Source: Dyella sp. SG609
GTDB taxonomy: Bacteria; Pseudomonadota; Gammaproteobacteria; Xanthomonadales; Rhodanobacteraceae
Direction of reading: 5' to 3'
Length of the DNA: 64,000 nucleotides
NCBI RefSeq assembly: GCF_012275375.1
Contig: NZ_JAAZQJ010000001.1
Coordinates: forward strand, 248,001 to 312,000
Both the position numbers and the translations under genes were made by a program. Position 1 is the first letter of the stretch, and every line of letters starts with the position of its first letter. Positions 10,119 through 38,071 of the stretch are shown here, piece after piece. The notes below the pieces were generated by a model that was not told where the DNA came from, searched no databases, and saw only the letters and a list, made by a program, of their open reading frames with translations.

Positions 10119-11990
10119 TTATTGCTGCAGCTGGGTCTGCACGTCGTTGATGGAGTTGCGGATGCGCACGGTGAAGATCGAATCGGCGTGGTGGATCATT
10201 ACCAGCCGCTCGGTGGCGCGCGTCATCGCCACGTACAGCAGGCGCGCTTCCTCCGCTTCGTCCTTGCCCGGCATCGGCAGCGAGCCCAGGCCCGGGATGA
10301 TCACCAGCGGGAATTCCAGGCCCTTGCTGGAATGCATGGTGACCAGCTTGACCGTATCCAGCCCCGGCTCGAACAGGGCGCGCTTGCCGTCGCCGTCGGC
10401 CAGCGTGCTGGGAACCTCCGCGCGCTGCAGCGCCTCGTGCAGGCGCTCGCCTTCCCACTTGTTGCGGAAGATCACCGCGATGTCGGCGAGCGGGCGGCCC
10501 AGCGTGCGCTCCTCGCGCAGGCGGTCGATGATGGCCGGCAGCTGGTCCTCGGTGCGTTCCACACGGACCAGTTCGGGCAGGGCGCCGCGGCGGCCGGCGC
10601 TTTCCGGCGCCACCAGCGGCACGCCGTCCTCGTCGGCGTCGTCGTGGCCGAGCAGCAATTCGTTGGCGAAGCCGCGCGCCACCGAAAGGATTTCCAGCGT
10701 ATTGCGGTAATTGAGCTTGAGGATGGTGGTGCGGCCCTGCGCCTGCACGCCCAGGCTTTTCCAGCTCAGGCGCTTGCGGTCCGGCTTGCCGTAGATGTTC
10801 TGCGCGTCGTCGTACAGCACCAGCAGCGAGTTGGTGCTGGGGTCGATCATCTGCACGATCAGCTTGTACCAGTCCGGCTCGAAGTCGTGGCCTTCGTCGA
10901 TCAGCACGGCGCCGTACTGGAAGCGCGGAATCTGGCCCTTGTCGACGCCCTCGATCACCGCCGGCGGCAGTGCGTCGAAGAAGCCGCGGCCTTCCGGCGG
11001 CAGCGGCACGTGGTAGGCGCTGAGCATGGCGCGGCACCACTTGTGGAAGTTGTAGACCTGCACCTTGTCGCTCAGGCCGCGCTCGCCCATCAGCTGGTCC
11101 AGCCGCGCGGCCAGCGTCTTGTTGTAGCAGAGCACCAGGATCGGCTTGCTCAGCGCACGCGCCAGGTGCATGGCGCGGAAGCCCAGGATCATGGTTTTGC
11201 CGGATCCGGCCACGCCGTGGATGATGCGGTGCTCGTCGCCGAGCGAACGCGCCAGCTGTTCCTGCTGCGCGTCCATCACCTTGATCAGGTCGGGAATCTC
11301 CACCTTGGCCACCGCGCCGGCGGTGGACGCGTCGAACAGGCCGAACTGGCCGGAACCCGGTTCCACGCGGATCTCCGGGAACAGGTGCCAGCGCACGCGG
11401 TCGATCTGCGGCAAGGTGAGCGCGGTGGGGAAGATCTGCGGGTACATCGCCCACAGGCGTTCCTGGAAACCCTCGGCGTCGACCGACTCGTACATCTCGT
11501 CTTGGCAGATCACCAGATGCGCGGGAATCACCGCATCCAGCCCGCCCGCGTCGAACTGCTTGCGGCTGATATTGGCCAGCACCACGCCGTAGCCCCAGGG
11601 CATGATCAGCTTGCCCTCGTACGGGTGGCCCGGCGGGTGGCGCAGCGCCGGGTCGCGCTGCAGCAGCTTGTAGACCTCGCTGGCGCAGTCGCGCGCCTGC
11701 ATCAGCGGGTTGTGCTCCTTCACGCTGGCGCGGCCGGTGAGCAGGGTGAACAGGGTAGGGTCGGCCTGCTGGATGGTGTCCGGCTTCCAGTCCTTCACTT
11801 CCAGCGCGAGCAGGCCGCGGCGGGGGTGGAACACGATGAAGTCCGGGCGGCGCTGGCGCGGGCCGATCGGCACGTCGTACCACAGCAGGTAGTCTTCCTC
11901 GAGCTTCTGTTCCAGGCGCTCGGAAAAGCGCTTTTCGCCGCTGGTCATGCGCGACAGGCAGCTGTTTCTGGTTGGAATGAGCGTTGCCAC
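10119..11990 (-). CDS. NERD-domain UvrD/PcrA-like superfamily 1 helicase
   Basis: 623 residues. The N-terminal NERD nuclease-like domain (about 15-160) shows PDFIVFHPRRGLLALEVKDW, with the D...ExK of restriction-type nucleases. The SF1 helicase follows: Walker A GVAGSGKT (259-266), Walker B LIDEGHDF, motif III-like LYDDAQNIY, LNYRNT, motif V MHSSKGLEFPLV and motif VI LLYVAMTRA. It probably unwinds and processes damaged DNA. I chose GTG 11990 (VATLIPTRNSC) because GGGAAG lies just upstream and this start block is family-like; the first in-frame ATG (11948) lacks a ribosome site. The divergent VOC gene lies about 140 bp away. Its exact cellular role is unknown. Confidence 0.88.
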   Translation of the reverse strand: MATLIPTRNSCLSRMTSGEKRFSERLEQKLEEDYLLWYDVPIGPRQRRPDFIVFHPRRGLLALEVKDWKPDTIQQADPTLFTLLTGRASVKEHNPLMQARDCASEVYKLLQRDPALRHPPGHPYEGKLIMPWGYGVVLANISRKQFDAGGLDAVIPAHLVICQDEMYESVDAEGFQERLWAMYPQIFPTALTLPQIDRVRWHLFPEIRVEPGSGQFGLFDASTAGAVAKVEIPDLIKVMDAQQEQLARSLGDEHRIIHGVAGSGKTMILGFRAMHLARALSKPILVLCYNKTLAARLDQLMGERGLSDKVQVYNFHKWCRAMLSAYHVPLPPEGRGFFDALPPAVIEGVDKGQIPRFQYGAVLIDEGHDFEPDWYKLIVQMIDPSTNSLLVLYDDAQNIYGKPDRKRLSWKSLGVQAQGRTTILKLNYRNTLEILSVARGFANELLLGHDDADEDGVPLVAPESAGRRGALPELVRVERTEDQLPAIIDRLREERTLGRPLADIAVIFRNKWEGERLHEALQRAEVPSTLADGDGKRALFEPGLDTVKLVTMHSSKGLEFPLVIIPGLGSLPMPGKDEAEEARLLYVAMTRATERLVMIHHADSIFTVRIRNSINDVQTQLQQ

Positions 11991-12128
11991 CGTCGCTTCC
12001 CTTTTGCGTGTGGCGGCGACGTTAGCGGATCGCGGATCGGTGTCAATTCGCGGTTGGCATGGCAGGCCGCATGGGACGGGGCCTGGCGGAGGGTGCATGA
12101 TGGCCGTTCCCACCCCGAGGAGCCTGTC

Positions 12129-12618: not shown

Positions 12619-12689
12619 GTCGCCGGCATTTTCCGGATTTCACCATCGGGGGTTTGCATCGCCCGGATGCTGTGTTATCCATACGCCCC

Positions 12690-12770
12690 ATGACCTTCTC
12701 CTCCGCCCGCTATTACTTTTGGTTCTACGGCTATCCGATGCCGGCGGCGGAGGAAGAGGTGCGATCGTAA
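12690..12770 (+). CDS. Aromatic-rich leader peptide of the DAHP synthase attenuator
   Basis: A 26-residue open frame: MTFSSARYYFWFYGYP then MPAAEEEVRS and TAA. Codons 8-15 read Tyr-Tyr-Phe-Trp-Phe-Tyr-Gly-Tyr, an extreme run of all three aromatic amino acids, the end-products of the pathway started by the next gene. The only downstream gene is the DAHP synthase at 12866, and a rho-independent terminator lies between the two. That is the standard design of a transcription-attenuation leader. No Shine-Dalgarno is obvious before ATG 12690. TTGCAT (12654-12659) and TATCCA (12676-12681) with 16-bp spacing are a possible promoter, which would make the message almost leaderless. Function is inferred from sequence only. 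Confidence 0.85.
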   Translation: MTFSSARYYFWFYGYPMPAAEEEVRS

Positions 12771-12827
12771 GCAGAACCCGACGACCACACTTCCGAAAAG
12801 CCGCCAGCCACCACTGGCGGCTTTTTT
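12740..12827 (+). promoter_or_regulatory. Attenuator: antiterminator arm and intrinsic terminator before DAHP synthase
   Basis: The terminator is AAAGCCGCCAG (12797-12807), a 6-nt loop, CTGGCGGCTTT (12814-12824) and a run of six T (12822-12827). GCCGGCGGC (12740-12748), inside the leader frame just after the aromatic codons, can pair 8 of 9 bases with GCCGCCAGC (12800-12808), the left arm of the terminator. A ribosome stalled on the aromatic codons would leave this arm free to form the antiterminator; a ribosome that keeps moving would allow the terminator. Pairings are read from the sequence; the switching is inference. Confidence 0.8.
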
Positions 12828-12865
12828 CATGGCCGCCACTGGACCCCCACCCAGGAATCCGAGCC

Positions 12866-13963
12866 ATGACCTTGCCGCACACCGACGACCTGCGCATCCG
12901 CGCGATCACCCCCTTGAGTACGCCCGCCGACGTGATGCGCGACTGCCATGCCGGCGAACGCGCGCTCGACACCGTGGCGCATGCGCGCAGCGCCGTGCAC
13001 GACATCCTCGCCGGCCTGGACGACCGGCTGGTGGTGGTGATCGGCCCCTGCTCGATCCACGACACCAGCGCCGCGATGGAATACGCGCGCCGCCTGCTGG
13101 CGCAGCGGCGCCGCTATGCGGACACGCTGGAGATCGTGATGCGCGTGTATTTCGAGAAGCCGCGCACCACGGTGGGCTGGAAAGGCCTGATCAACGACCC
13201 GGATCTCGACGGCAGCTTCCGCATCGACAAGGGCCTGCGCCTGGCGCGCACCGTGCTGCGCGACATCAACGAGCTGGGCGTGCCGGCCGGCTGCGAATTC
13301 CTGGACATGATCACCCCGCAGTACATCGCCGACCTGGTGGCCTGGGGCGCGATCGGCGCGCGCACCACTGAGAGCCAGGTGCATCGCGAGCTGGCCTCGG
13401 GGCTGTCCTGCCCGGTGGGTTTCAAGAACGGCACCGACGGCAACGTCAAGATCGCGGTGGATGCGGTGCAGGCCGCCTCGCAGCCGCACCATTTCATGGC
13501 CGTGACCAAGGACGGCCGCACCGCCATCGCCAGCACCATCGGCAACGAGGACTGCCACGTGATCCTGCGCGGCGGCAAGCAGCCGAACTACGACGCGGAC
13601 AGCGTGGATGCCGCGTGCGAGGCGATCGCGCGCGCGGGCCTGGCGCCGCGCCTGATGGTCGACGCCAGCCACGCCAACAGCAGCAAGCAGCCGGAGAACC
13701 AGCCGCGGGTGATCGACGATATCGCGCTGCAGCTGGAAGACGGCGAGCGCCGCATCATCGGCGTGATGGTGGAAAGCCATCTGGTCGGCGGACGCCAGGA
13801 ACTGGTGGCGGGCGAAGCCTTGCGTTACGGCCAGAGCATCACCGACGGCTGCATCGATTGGGAGACGTCGCTCGGTGTGCTGGAACGCCTGGACGAAGCC
13901 GTGCGCCGCCGCCGCGCGGGTTCGGGCGTGGCGGCGCGGCTGCGGCAGGCGGTGGGTTGCTGA
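12866..13963 (+). CDS. aroG: 3-deoxy-7-phosphoheptulonate (DAHP) synthase, class I
   Basis: A 365-residue enzyme condensing phosphoenolpyruvate and erythrose-4-phosphate in the first step of the shikimate pathway. It has the AroFGH-type N-terminal regulatory segment (DDLRIRAITPLSTP), the active-site block VVIGPCSIHD, MRVYFEKPRTTVGWKGLINDP (split here), GARTTESQVHRELASGLS, GFKNGTDGN and the metal site DASHANSSKQ. The length is close to E. coli AroG (350). Whether it is feedback-inhibited by Phe or Tyr cannot be decided by eye, so the symbol is approximate. It stands alone and follows a leader-peptide attenuator covering all three aromatic amino acids, which suggests it is the main general-purpose isozyme. 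Confidence 0.95.
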   Translation: MTLPHTDDLRIRAITPLSTPADVMRDCHAGERALDTVAHARSAVHDILAGLDDRLVVVIGPCSIHDTSAAMEYARRLLAQRRRYADTLEIVMRVYFEKPRTTVGWKGLINDPDLDGSFRIDKGLRLARTVLRDINELGVPAGCEFLDMITPQYIADLVAWGAIGARTTESQVHRELASGLSCPVGFKNGTDGNVKIAVDAVQAASQPHHFMAVTKDGRTAIASTIGNEDCHVILRGGKQPNYDADSVDAACEAIARAGLAPRLMVDASHANSSKQPENQPRVIDDIALQLEDGERRIIGVMVESHLVGGRQELVAGEALRYGQSITDGCIDWETSLGVLERLDEAVRRRRAGSGVAARLRQAVGC

Positions 13964-14083: not shown

Positions 14084-14374
14084 ATGAACTACGAGATCAA
14101 GCATCAGCCGAACGAGCGACGCTTCTCCACCGCGGTCGAGCTGGAACTGAGCGTGCTCGACTACACCTTGTCGCCCACGCCTTCCGGTGAAGTGATGACC
14201 ATCACCCATACCGGCGTGCCGCAGCCGCTGGAAGGACGCGGCATCGCCTCGGCCCTGGTGAAAACCGCGCTGGACCATGCACGCGCGCAGCATTGGAAGG
14301 TGCGTCCCGCATGTTCCTACGCCGATGCATGGATGCGCCGCCATCCGGAGTACGAAGACCTGCGCGCGGGCTGA
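14084..14374 (+). CDS. Small GNAT-like N-acetyltransferase (YjdJ/NATD1 type)
   Basis: A 96-residue protein that fits the minimal GCN5-like fold of the YjdJ family: RRFSTAVELELSVLDYTL, then MTITHTGVPQPLEGRGIASALVKTAL with the acetyl-CoA pyrophosphate loop GRGIASAL, and the closing PACSYADAWMRRHPEYEDL. These proteins bind acetyl-CoA but natural substrates are unknown. ATG 14084 opens a compact gene with 60 bp to the next one in the same direction. Confidence 0.88.
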   Translation: MNYEIKHQPNERRFSTAVELELSVLDYTLSPTPSGEVMTITHTGVPQPLEGRGIASALVKTALDHARAQHWKVRPACSYADAWMRRHPEYEDLRAG

Positions 14375-14434
14375 CCGGCTCGCTATCATCGCGCGGTCGC
14401 TGCGATGGTCGCCGCGGCTTCCAGGGAGATCGCC

Positions 14435-15112
14435 ATGAACAGCACCGCCCCGGGCAAGCCCCGGCCCAGGACGTACCGGCGCTTCCATTATCTGCGCGCG
14501 CGTCCGCGCCTGATGGTGTCGATGGGCATCTTCGCCGCCGCGCTGGCCGCCTTGCTGGTGTATGGCACGCGCGCCTCGATGGCGCTGCTGCTGGCTTTCG
14601 ATTTCGCCGCGCTGGTCTACCTCAGCCTGCTGGCCGTGCTGTTCGGCCGCGCCAGCCCGGAGCTGATGCGCTGCCAGGCGCGCGCGCAGGACACGGGGCG
14701 CTGGGGGTTCCTGTGGAGCGCGATCGTGCTGACCGCGGTGGTGATGGTCGCGCTGGGCGCGGAACTGCACGGCGGCGCGGAAGGCGGCATGGCCTCGATC
14801 GTGCTGGCCGCCGGCAGCATCGTGCTGTCCTGGCTGTTCATGAACACCATGTTCGCCATGCACTATGCGCATGGCTATTACGGCGACTTCGGCAAGAAGC
14901 ACGAAGGCCTGCAGTTTCCCGAGACGCCGGAGCCGGACTACTGGGACTTCGCGTATTTCGCCATCGTGATCGGCATGACCTTCCAGGTCTCCGACGTGCA
15001 GATCACCAGCCGCTACCTGCGCCGCGTGGCGCTGCTGCACAGCGTGATCGCGTTCTTCTTCAACGTGTTCATCATCGCGTTGAGCGTGAATGTGGTGGCG
15101 GGCAAAGCGTAG
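14435..15112 (+). CDS. DUF1345 family integral membrane protein
   Basis: 225 residues with about five membrane segments. The family signature is clear: NTMFAMHYAHGYYGDF, then PDYWDFAYFAIVIGMTFQVSDV, and a closing FFFNVFIIALSVNVV. The function of DUF1345 is unknown. ATG 14435 is preceded by AGGGAG at a good distance; an ATG at 14405 is not. The stop codon TAG is the second to fourth base of a REP-like inverted repeat that follows, so the repeat has supplied the stop. Confidence 0.88.
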   Translation: MNSTAPGKPRPRTYRRFHYLRARPRLMVSMGIFAAALAALLVYGTRASMALLLAFDFAALVYLSLLAVLFGRASPELMRCQARAQDTGRWGFLWSAIVLTAVVMVALGAELHGGAEGGMASIVLAAGSIVLSWLFMNTMFAMHYAHGYYGDFGKKHEGLQFPETPEPDYWDFAYFAIVIGMTFQVSDVQITSRYLRRVALLHSVIAFFFNVFIIALSVNVVAGKA

Positions 15113-37643: not shown

Positions 37644-37805
37644 GTGCGGACTGTGTTTGCCGGGGTCACCTGTTTTGTGACCCGATGCCGCTGATCAGCG
37701 ATCCGCTTCATCGCCTCACCCCTAGGGTTTTCCTTAGCAGCTCAGTAAGTCGGCCGTTCCGAAGGAACGGCTGAGCCTCAATCAAAACCTTTAGGAGTGT
37801 TTCAC
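37644..37805 (+). promoter_or_regulatory. Leader RNA of cold-shock gene 1
   Basis: The 391-base gap 37415-37805 contains no gene. Its 3' half is a long 5' UTR after TATGAT (37638-37643, probable -10). It shares CTGTGTTTG, CCCGATG and CAGTAAGTCG with the leaders of the next two csp genes and contains its own stem GCCGTTCC-GAA-GGAACGGC before AGGAG. A long, conserved, structured UTR is the hallmark of cspA-type cold control. The 5' half of the gap is A/T-rich with no recognised site. Confidence 0.65.
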
Positions 37806-38015
37806 ATGTCTGATCGTCAGATCGGTACCGTCAAGTGGTTCAACGATGCCAAGGGCTTCGGCTTCATCAGCCGTGACAACGGCCCGGACGTCTTCGTCCA
37901 CTTCCGCGCCATCCAGGGCAACGGCTTCAAGAGCCTGGCCGAGGGTGACAAGGTCAGCTTCAAGGTCGTGCAGGGCCAGAAGGGTCTGCAGGCCGACGAA
38001 GTGCAGAAGGCCTGA
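37806..38015 (+). CDS. Cold-shock protein, CspA family (copy 1)
   Basis: A 69-residue single cold-shock domain binding single-stranded RNA/DNA. RNP1 is KGFGFISRD and RNP2 is VFVHFRAI; the start [15 protein letters not shown] is typical. It acts as an RNA chaperone or antiterminator. ATG 37806 is preceded by AGGAG 8 nt upstream. First of three tandem paralogues, each with its own leader and terminator. The VHFRAI variant (rather than VHFSAI) is shared by all three. Confidence 0.95.
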
Positions 38016-38038
38016 TCCAAGGCATTCTTGATCGATTG

Positions 38039-38071
38039 AAAAGGCCGGGCAGCGATGCCCGGCCTTTTTTT
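38039..38071 (+). terminator. Terminator of cold-shock gene 1
   Basis: AAAAGGCCGGGC, a 6-nt loop, GCCCGGCC and seven T. Confidence 0.93.

What the first reader, a model, noticed from the sequence alone, without database searches (positions are those of the whole stretch)
12690..12865. Complete-looking transcription attenuator for DAHP synthase with a leader peptide sensing Tyr, Phe and Trp together
A 26-codon leader reads Tyr-Tyr-Phe-Trp-Phe-Tyr-Gly-Tyr at codons 8-15. It is followed by an intrinsic terminator (12797-12827) and an alternative arm (GCCGGCGGC, 12740-12748) that pairs 8/9 with the terminator's left arm. The next gene makes the first intermediate common to all three aromatic amino acids. 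Classical aromatic attenuators (trp, pheA) watch one amino acid; here one short run carries codons for all three, so starvation for any one could release the operon. It may also be translated almost leaderless, since no ribosome site is visible. I cannot say whether this exact leader is described.
Basis: partly seen in the sequence, partly recalled or inferred. Interest (0 to 1): 0.86.

Follow-up and report, generated by a model that had tools for sequence, protein, structure and literature searches.

The report
Leaderless aromatic attenuator before DAHP synthase
A tiny gene rich in tyrosine, phenylalanine and tryptophan codons sits before the gene for the first enzyme of aromatic amino acid synthesis, and its conservation in many bacteria suggests that it switches the enzyme gene on when these amino acids run short.

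Summary
In detail: a 26-codon ORF (12690-12770), an intrinsic terminator (12796-12827) and a type I DAHP synthase gene (12866-13963). I read it as a ribosome-mediated transcription attenuator. A relative precedes 96 of 97 deduplicated Xanthomonadales type I DAHPS loci; all 96 hold Phe, Tyr and Trp codons. It recurs in beta- and alphaproteobacteria. Terminator pairs covary. The antiterminator core GGCGG is kept in 36 of 36 although the codon that opens it varies among ten amino acids. The leader looks leaderless: a -10-like box ends 6-10 nt before its start in 96 of 96, and 0 of 96 have a Shine-Dalgarno-like tetramer.

Nearest precedent: aroR of Corynebacterium glutamicum (Phe-Tyr-Phe). Ten searches of an open-access library found no description of this family, but key subscription papers were not held. 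New variant of a known kind. That lack of any single amino acid releases it is inferred, not shown.

The parts
12654..12681 (+). Proposed promoter: -35-like TTGCAT 12654-12659, 16-nt spacer, TGTG then -10-like TATCCA 12676-12681, ending 8 nt before the leader ATG
   Evidence: Sequence; a GnTA box ends 6-10 nt before the leader start in 96 of 96 Xanthomonadales leaders. Not found by the consensus scan; no 5' end mapped.
12690..12770 (+). Leader ORF, 26 codons plus stop, probably leaderless
12711..12734 (+). Aromatic run, codons 8-15: Tyr Tyr Phe Trp Phe Tyr Gly Tyr
   Evidence: Trp present in 78 of 78 distinct Xanthomonadales leader ORFs
12699..12707 (+). Arm 1 (TCCTCCGCC), pairs with arm 2 in the 1:2 hairpin
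   Evidence: Fold; 1:2 energy below the synonymous-null mean in 33 of 38 and 25 of 35 representatives, p<0.05 in 13 and 9; pair counts inconclusive
12746..12754 (+). Arm 2 (GGCGGAGGA); conserved antiterminator core GGCGG 12746-12750.
   Evidence: the other register fits relatives less well
12796..12807 (+). Arm 3, left arm of the terminator (AAAAGCCGCCAG, core CCGCC 12801-12805)
12814..12827 (+). Arm 4, right arm of the terminator (12814-12825), with the T run 12822-12827
12866..13963 (+). Type I DAHP synthase (3-deoxy-7-phosphoheptulonate synthase), the regulated gene
   Evidence: Pfam PF00793; TIGR00034 530.6 bits against a cut-off of 173.2

Best explanation
A ribosome-mediated transcription attenuator. 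Transcription probably starts at or next to the leader AUG, so ribosomes load on the bare 5' end. With enough charged tRNA-Tyr, tRNA-Phe and tRNA-Trp the ribosome crosses the aromatic run, arms 1 and 2 re-pair behind it, and arms 3 and 4 form the terminator. If a ribosome waits at Tyr8, Tyr9, Phe10, Trp11 or (depending on the footprint) Phe12, it covers arm 1, arm 2 (GGCGG) pairs with arm 3 (CCGCC), the terminator cannot form and the DAHP synthase gene is transcribed. Shown by computation: anatomy, conservation, terminator covariation, coding-independent constraint on arm 2, conserved aromatic codons, lack of a ribosome site. Inferred: the transcription start, the stalling, the 1:2 hairpin as off state, and that lack of any one of the three amino acids is enough. 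The confidence given is for the attenuation mechanism; I put the three-way OR gate at about 0.5.
For: Leader and terminator in 96 of 97 deduplicated Xanthomonadales loci, in 50 of 72 named loci outside the order and in 25 of 26 loci of a phylum-wide draw, two of them counted before. F, Y and W in 96 of 96; Trp in 78 of 78 distinct ORFs, and the codon after it Tyr in 41 and Phe in 36. Terminator covariation: 11 cells changed on both sides, 0 of 500 shuffles as many. Arm 2: codon before GCG ends in G in 36 of 36 with ten different amino acids, GCG in 36 of 36. 2:3 energy below the synonymous-null mean in 34 of 38 and 32 of 35. A Trp11 stall sequesters arm 3 with probability 0.9996 against a mean of 0.64 for recoded arms, 7 of 200 as high. 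Leader Phe and Tyr codons shifted to TTT and TAT. No other full-length match of the RNA model in the genome.
Against: No expression data. 2:3 single-locus p<0.05 in only 12 of 38 and 11 of 35; its core is invariant, so covariation is weak. In the terminator count, further pair types were matched by 171 of 500 shuffles. The off state is poorly predicted: over 37 loci arm 3 is sequestered with mean probability 0.58 with the ribosome at the stop and 0.59 with no ribosome, against 0.20 and 0.18 in the window, and with the largest footprint the window's stop-codon state also reaches 0.77. With the smallest footprint a Trp11 stall gives only 0.46. 1:2 pair counts are inconclusive. L098 and L288 have DAHPS of this kind without the leader.
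Confidence: 0.87

Rival explanations
1. An attenuator of the same build that in practice answers mainly to one amino acid (for example Phe), the other aromatic codons adding little.
For: The C. glutamicum aroR leader holds Phe-Tyr-Phe but answers to Phe and not to Tyr (PMC11802643 passage). In the masking model Tyr13 and Tyr15 do not help and Trp11 depends on the footprint.
Against: Trp is present in 78 of 78 distinct Xanthomonadales leaders although a single codon change would remove it, and Phe and Tyr replace each other freely next to it. In beta loci Trp comes and goes between close relatives.
Confidence: 0.3
2. Nascent-peptide arrest: the aromatic-rich peptide itself stalls the ribosome in response to a free ligand, as TnaC does with Trp.
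For: A conserved peptide with an invariant Trp and often a following Pro-x-Pro.
Against: Phe/Tyr exchange, variable length and variable flanking residues; downstream residues vary where the RNA does not. Beta leaders differ widely in sequence.
Confidence: 0.05
3. An incidental terminator, or a source of a trans-acting small RNA or peptide, without tRNA-dependent control of the downstream gene.
For: The terminator is strong, and an attenuator RNA can act in trans (rnTrpL of S. meliloti, PMC7298713 passages).
Against: The ORF and its aromatic codons are conserved far beyond chance, the element follows the DAHPS gene, and arm 2 is constrained within the ORF. A trans role in addition is not excluded.
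Confidence: 0.05
4. The leader acts on translation of the gene or through Rho rather than through the intrinsic terminator.
For: Leader ORFs near genes can act by ribosome reinitiation (PMC4833913, first of three parts read).
Against: Leader stop and gene start are 95 nt apart in the window, far beyond the 10-11 nt that paper discusses, and an intrinsic terminator with covariation lies between them.
Confidence: 0.04

Closest known systems
aroR leader before aroF (DAHPS) of Corynebacterium glutamicum (Neshat et al. 2014, not held; known here from passages of PMC11802643 and PMC4046766)
   Same: Leader peptide with aromatic codons before a DAHP synthase gene; transcription attenuation.
   Different: Phe-Tyr-Phe without Trp; reported to answer to Phe, not Tyr. 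Actinobacterium. Leader sequences were not compared here.
trp and pheA attenuators of enterobacteria (trpL, pheL; general knowledge and PMC11802643 passage)
   Same: Short leader ORF with product codons, 1:2, 2:3 and 3:4 arms, intrinsic terminator.
   Different: They watch one amino acid and precede branch genes; the present gene makes the precursor of all three. Rfam Phe_leader scores 18.1 bits against a gathering score of 55; no Trp_leader match was listed.
Leaderless leader peptides: trpL of Sinorhizobium meliloti (PMC7298713 passages) and leuL, trpL, ilvL of Streptomyces lividans (PMC8079986 passages)
   Same: Leader ORF at the 5' end of the transcript, without Shine-Dalgarno sequence.
   Different: Other genes and amino acids; there the 5' end was mapped, here it is predicted.
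Predicted RNA elements before aroF and aroH of Shewanella (PMC2659441 passages)
   Same: RNA control proposed before DAHPS genes; aroF listed as 'Attenuator sensing tyr-tRNA'.
   Different: Other lineage and isozymes; sequences were not compared here.

Membership tests
Ribosome-mediated transcription attenuator (trp/phe type) | Short leader ORF rich in codons for the pathway's products | tested here: met
   7 of 8 codons aromatic in the run; F, Y and W in 96 of 96 Xanthomonadales leaders
Ribosome-mediated transcription attenuator (trp/phe type) | Intrinsic terminator between leader and gene | tested here: met
   12796-12827; covariation
Ribosome-mediated transcription attenuator (trp/phe type) | Antiterminator pairing that excludes the terminator | tested here: met
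   GGCGG/CCGCC invariant in 36 of 36 and constrained independently of the peptide; single-locus energies only sometimes significant
Ribosome-mediated transcription attenuator (trp/phe type) | Anti-antiterminator (1:2) hairpin | tested here: inconclusive
   Strong in the window; mixed elsewhere
Ribosome-mediated transcription attenuator (trp/phe type) | Downstream gene makes the amino acids that are sensed | tested here: met
   DAHP synthase
Ribosome-mediated transcription attenuator (trp/phe type) | Read-through rises on starvation for the amino acid | not testable with these tools
   Needs an experiment
Rfam Phe_leader (RF01859) | Score at or above the family's gathering score | tested here: not met
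   18.1 bits against 55, E 0.97
T-box or known riboswitch | Rfam match at the leader | tested here: not met
   No match at gathering score near the leader; the matches listed up to E 10 are all below gathering and none is a T-box or riboswitch
C. glutamicum aroR family | Common descent of the leader | not tested
   The aroR sequence was not fetched; only paper passages were seen
Leaderless leader peptide | 5' end of the transcript at the start codon | not testable with these tools
   Predicted from promoter spacing in 96 of 96 and absence of Shine-Dalgarno-like tetramers in 96 of 96, and in 24 of 26 alpha loci from the box position

The most novel reading that the evidence does not exclude
One ancient attenuator family before DAHP synthase genes of alpha-, beta- and gammaproteobacteria works as an OR gate on three charged tRNAs, loaded in many lineages without a ribosome site. 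It is an evolvable sensor: the Trp input is fixed in the clade of Xanthomonadales and alphaproteobacterial enzymes and is gained or lost by changes of single codons in the beta groups, while the RNA arms stay fixed.
Probability: 0.5. Interest if true: 0.66.

Novelty: new variant of a known kind. Interest (0 to 1): 0.52.

Why it matters
It would put the entry step of the shikimate pathway in several proteobacterial groups under a compact, protein-free sensor of all three end products. The gain and loss of the Trp codon between close relatives is a natural experiment on how an attenuator changes what it senses. The leaderless start means that the sensing ribosome would load without a Shine-Dalgarno sequence, which raises the testable question of how it keeps pace with RNA polymerase.

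Tried and rejected
Antiterminator register 12740-12748: 67% of cells paired in relatives and no covariation; replaced by the 12746-12750 register. Other copies in the genome: the RNA model's only full-length match there is this one; the second (model positions 47-141) is a terminator behind a gene that I take for fusA (EF-G) from its translation, by recall. Class-wide model search: 133 of 370 genomes have a match at E up to 0.1, mostly to the terminator part alone; of five genomes outside the order whose match loci I read, G539, G388 and G494 have an aromatic leader before a DAHPS-like frame, G344 and G495 do not. Leaders before the matches of a trpE family (three loci) and of prephenate dehydratase (one) in the same genome: at most 1, 3, 1 and 2 aromatic codons in 8. 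A like leader before type II DAHPS: 30 loci read, best runs 0 to 5 aromatic codons in 8, those of 4 and 5 being a small hydrophobic ORF of another kind; L194 and L199 had misplaced flanks and were read again, L194 with only 120 nt. Nascent-peptide arrest and incidental terminator: see rivals.

Rows dropped or mishandled: L122 left out as a duplicate of L008; L083 and 16 other minus-strand loci were read on the wrong strand and corrected; L038, L050, L055 and L072 were dropped as implausible leaders although the script proposed ORFs; 36 of 38 Xanthomonadales representatives went into alignment A1 (L162 and L169 left out by me); L162 was left out of the masking model (37 of 38); L246, L250 and L268 were left out of the tree as too short and, like L288, read again at the right offset. 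G041 was not fetched; G169 is a 53-residue partial match. L083 and L140 are probably the same genomes as L001 and L007 (equal contig lengths) and stayed in the count of 97; the 78 distinct ORFs are the safer number.

Full report
What is there. The leader ORF runs from ATG 12690 to TAA 12768-12770, 26 codons, with Tyr-Tyr-Phe-Trp-Phe-Tyr-Gly-Tyr at codons 8-15. A terminator follows (12796-12827), then a type I DAHP synthase at 12866-13963 (Pfam DAHP_synth_1; TIGR00034 well over its cut-off, NF006723 below its own). The genome lies in the same genus, by the tool's grouping, as G291, whose contig has the same length as that of Dyella sp. OK004; I take it for a Dyella or a close relative. It has one type I DAHPS and two type II DAHPS matches; type II is found in 150 of 151 genomes sampled from the order, type I in 92 of 299, one of these a 53-residue partial match. 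The attenuated enzyme is thus an additional isozyme.

Chance. In 1000 dinucleotide shuffles of the 300 nt before the gene no short ORF reached 7 aromatic codons in 8; the best had 5. The leader folds at -58.9 kcal/mol, z -4.5, none of 200 shuffles as stable.

Conservation in the order. I examined 90 upstream regions (30 loci returned, 60 fetched; G041 not fetched, G169 partial) plus 8 named Xanthomonadales loci; less one duplicate, 97. A leader with terminator was found in 96; L098 has none and shows only a decayed stretch. All 96 leaders contain F, Y and W. Among 78 distinct ORFs Trp is always present, at the aligned position in 77 and elsewhere in the run in L160; the next codon is Tyr in 41 and Phe in 36. 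Leader starts were assigned by rule (nearest ATG, else GTG or TTG), which is a choice.

Conservation beyond. Of the 72 named loci outside the order, 50 have an accepted leader, 4 proposals were dropped by me as implausible, and 18 gave none or no start (L071 had only 49 nt upstream). Of these 50 leaders, 32 hold F, Y and W, 17 F and Y, one F and W. In a phylum-wide draw of 299 genomes, 26 newly returned loci (DAHPS 66-74% identical; two are Xanthomonadales counted before) were read: 25 have leader and terminator, L288 does not. In a class-wide draw, 0 of 25 loci with 61-66% identity have an aromatic run of 5 or more in 8, three have 4. Only the best-scoring loci of each draw were read. The leader follows one part of the type I DAHPS family.

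Tree. A FastTree of 138 DAHPS proteins (92 with leader, 46 without) needs 11 changes of leader presence and, among rows with a leader, 9 changes of Trp in the run. In a clade of 49 rows, mainly Xanthomonadales and alphaproteobacteria, all 47 rows with a leader have Trp in the run. In beta groups Trp comes and goes between close relatives (L022 and L280; L033 and L279; L016 and L273). Support is local only, and deep forks are weak.

RNA arms. In alignment A1 (36 of 38 Xanthomonadales representatives) the invariant columns are, besides one T of the start codon, GGCGG (arm 2), CCGCC (arm 3), GGCGG (arm 4) and TTTT. The terminator has 96.0% of cells paired, three pairs with changes on both sides (8 of 500 shuffles as many) and 11 such cells (0 of 500); further pair types do not exceed shuffles (171 of 500). 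Over 145 of 146 terminators (L057 lacks the core) the pair next to the core is GC 93, AT 48, GT 4. Its best support is coding: the codon that supplies the first G encodes Leu, Ala, Gln, Pro, Thr, Arg, Ser, Trp, Met or Lys, yet ends in G in 36 of 36 (one is split by an alignment gap, and Trp and Met allow nothing else), and the next codon is GCG in 36 of 36; the window's DAHPS uses GCG for 57% of Ala, and G-ending codons for 88% of Leu but 21% of Thr and 14% of Arg. Against synonymous recoding, 2:3 energy beats the null mean in 34 of 38 and 32 of 35 representatives, with single-locus p<0.05 in 12 and 11; for 1:2 the figures are 33 and 25, with 13 and 9. Pair counts for 1:2 are inconclusive.

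Masking model. Masking a stalled ribosome (15 nt before to 12 nt after the first base of the A-site codon) and folding the RNA before arm 4 is made, arm 3 of the window is sequestered with probability 0.86-1.0 for stalls at codons 1-12, 0.15-0.30 for codons 13-19, 0.35-0.97 for codons 20-26, 0.20 at the stop and 0.18 without ribosome. Footprint 12/10 gives 0.46 for Trp11 and 0.15 for Phe12; footprint 17/14 gives 1.00 for both but also 0.77 at the stop. Over 37 loci, stalls from three codons before Trp to Trp itself average 0.96-0.97 and three codons after it 0.68, but the stop and naked states average 0.58 and 0.59, so the off state is not well predicted in relatives. For a Trp11 stall, random synonymous recoding of arm 2 lowers the mean to 0.64; 7 of 200 recodings are as high as the real sequence. 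This is an equilibrium model and weak evidence.

Leaderless start. In 96 of 96 Xanthomonadales leaders a GnTA box ends 6-10 nt before the start (7-9 in 94), and 0 of 96 have a Shine-Dalgarno-like tetramer at -20 to -4; 75 of 96 DAHPS starts have one in a 40-nt window, which is wider, so that comparison is loose. In 24 of 26 alpha-type loci (some unnamed, classed by their leaders) a TA hexamer ends 4-13 nt before the assigned start. In many Burkholderia-type and Oxalobacteraceae loci the box lies further upstream, by eye. No 5' end was mapped.

Codon choice. In 29 leaders and the DAHPS genes of the same 30 loci, Phe is TTT 55: TTC 17 in leaders and 13: 143 in genes; Tyr is TAT 56: TAC 38 and 35: 119. 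The loci are related, so the Fisher p values (3e-25, 7e-9) overstate it. Sensitivity of wobble-read codons or avoidance of structure could both explain it.

Elsewhere in the genome. The RNA model finds one full-length match, this one. No aromatic leader precedes the trpE-family or prephenate dehydratase matches.

What is known. Passages of PMC11802643 and PMC4046766 describe the leader before aroF in C. glutamicum, Phe-Tyr-Phe, answering to Phe and not Tyr by the former. Passages of PMC8079986 and PMC7298713 describe leaderless leader peptides. PMC2659441 passages list Shewanella aroF and aroH predictions. PMC2965389, PMC4842269, PMC1262725 and PMC1273637 were only searched for terms; of PMC4833913 the first of three parts was read (terms). 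Ten literature searches listed nothing that I recognised as this leader. The subscription papers most likely to hold one are not in the library, so absence from print is not shown.

Verdict. A conserved, probably leaderless attenuator with codons for several aromatic amino acids: a new variant of a known kind. The mechanism class is well supported; which amino acids trigger it is open.

Noticed in passing
window 37661-38071 (+): Rfam cspA thermoregulator RNA just over its gathering score (78.3 against 78 bits).
   Followed up: no
window 10119-12080 (-): Protein with NERD nuclease-related and UvrD-like helicase domains, upstream on the other strand.
   Followed up: no
window 14084-14371 and 14432-15109 (+): Downstream frames match a GCN5-related acetyltransferase (PF14542) and DUF1345.
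   Followed up: no
L173, L175-L179, L182, L184-L189, L191, L196, L199, L200, upstream of type II DAHPS: A small hydrophobic ORF of about 23-33 codons that begins MPxW precedes type II DAHPS in 17 of 30 loci (an 18th pattern match, L194, looks spurious); by eye no terminator lies between. It may be a small membrane protein.
   Followed up: partly
L098, upstream of DAHPS: The one Xanthomonadales locus of 97 without the leader; only a decayed stretch remains before an otherwise related DAHPS.
   Followed up: partly
L030 (Candidatus Burkholderia humilis), upstream of DAHPS: The leader appears broken: the two halves of the peptide known from relatives lie in different frames.
   Followed up: no
Leaders of L081-L110: Leaders prefer TTT and TAT where the DAHPS genes of the same loci prefer TTC and TAC.
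   Followed up: partly
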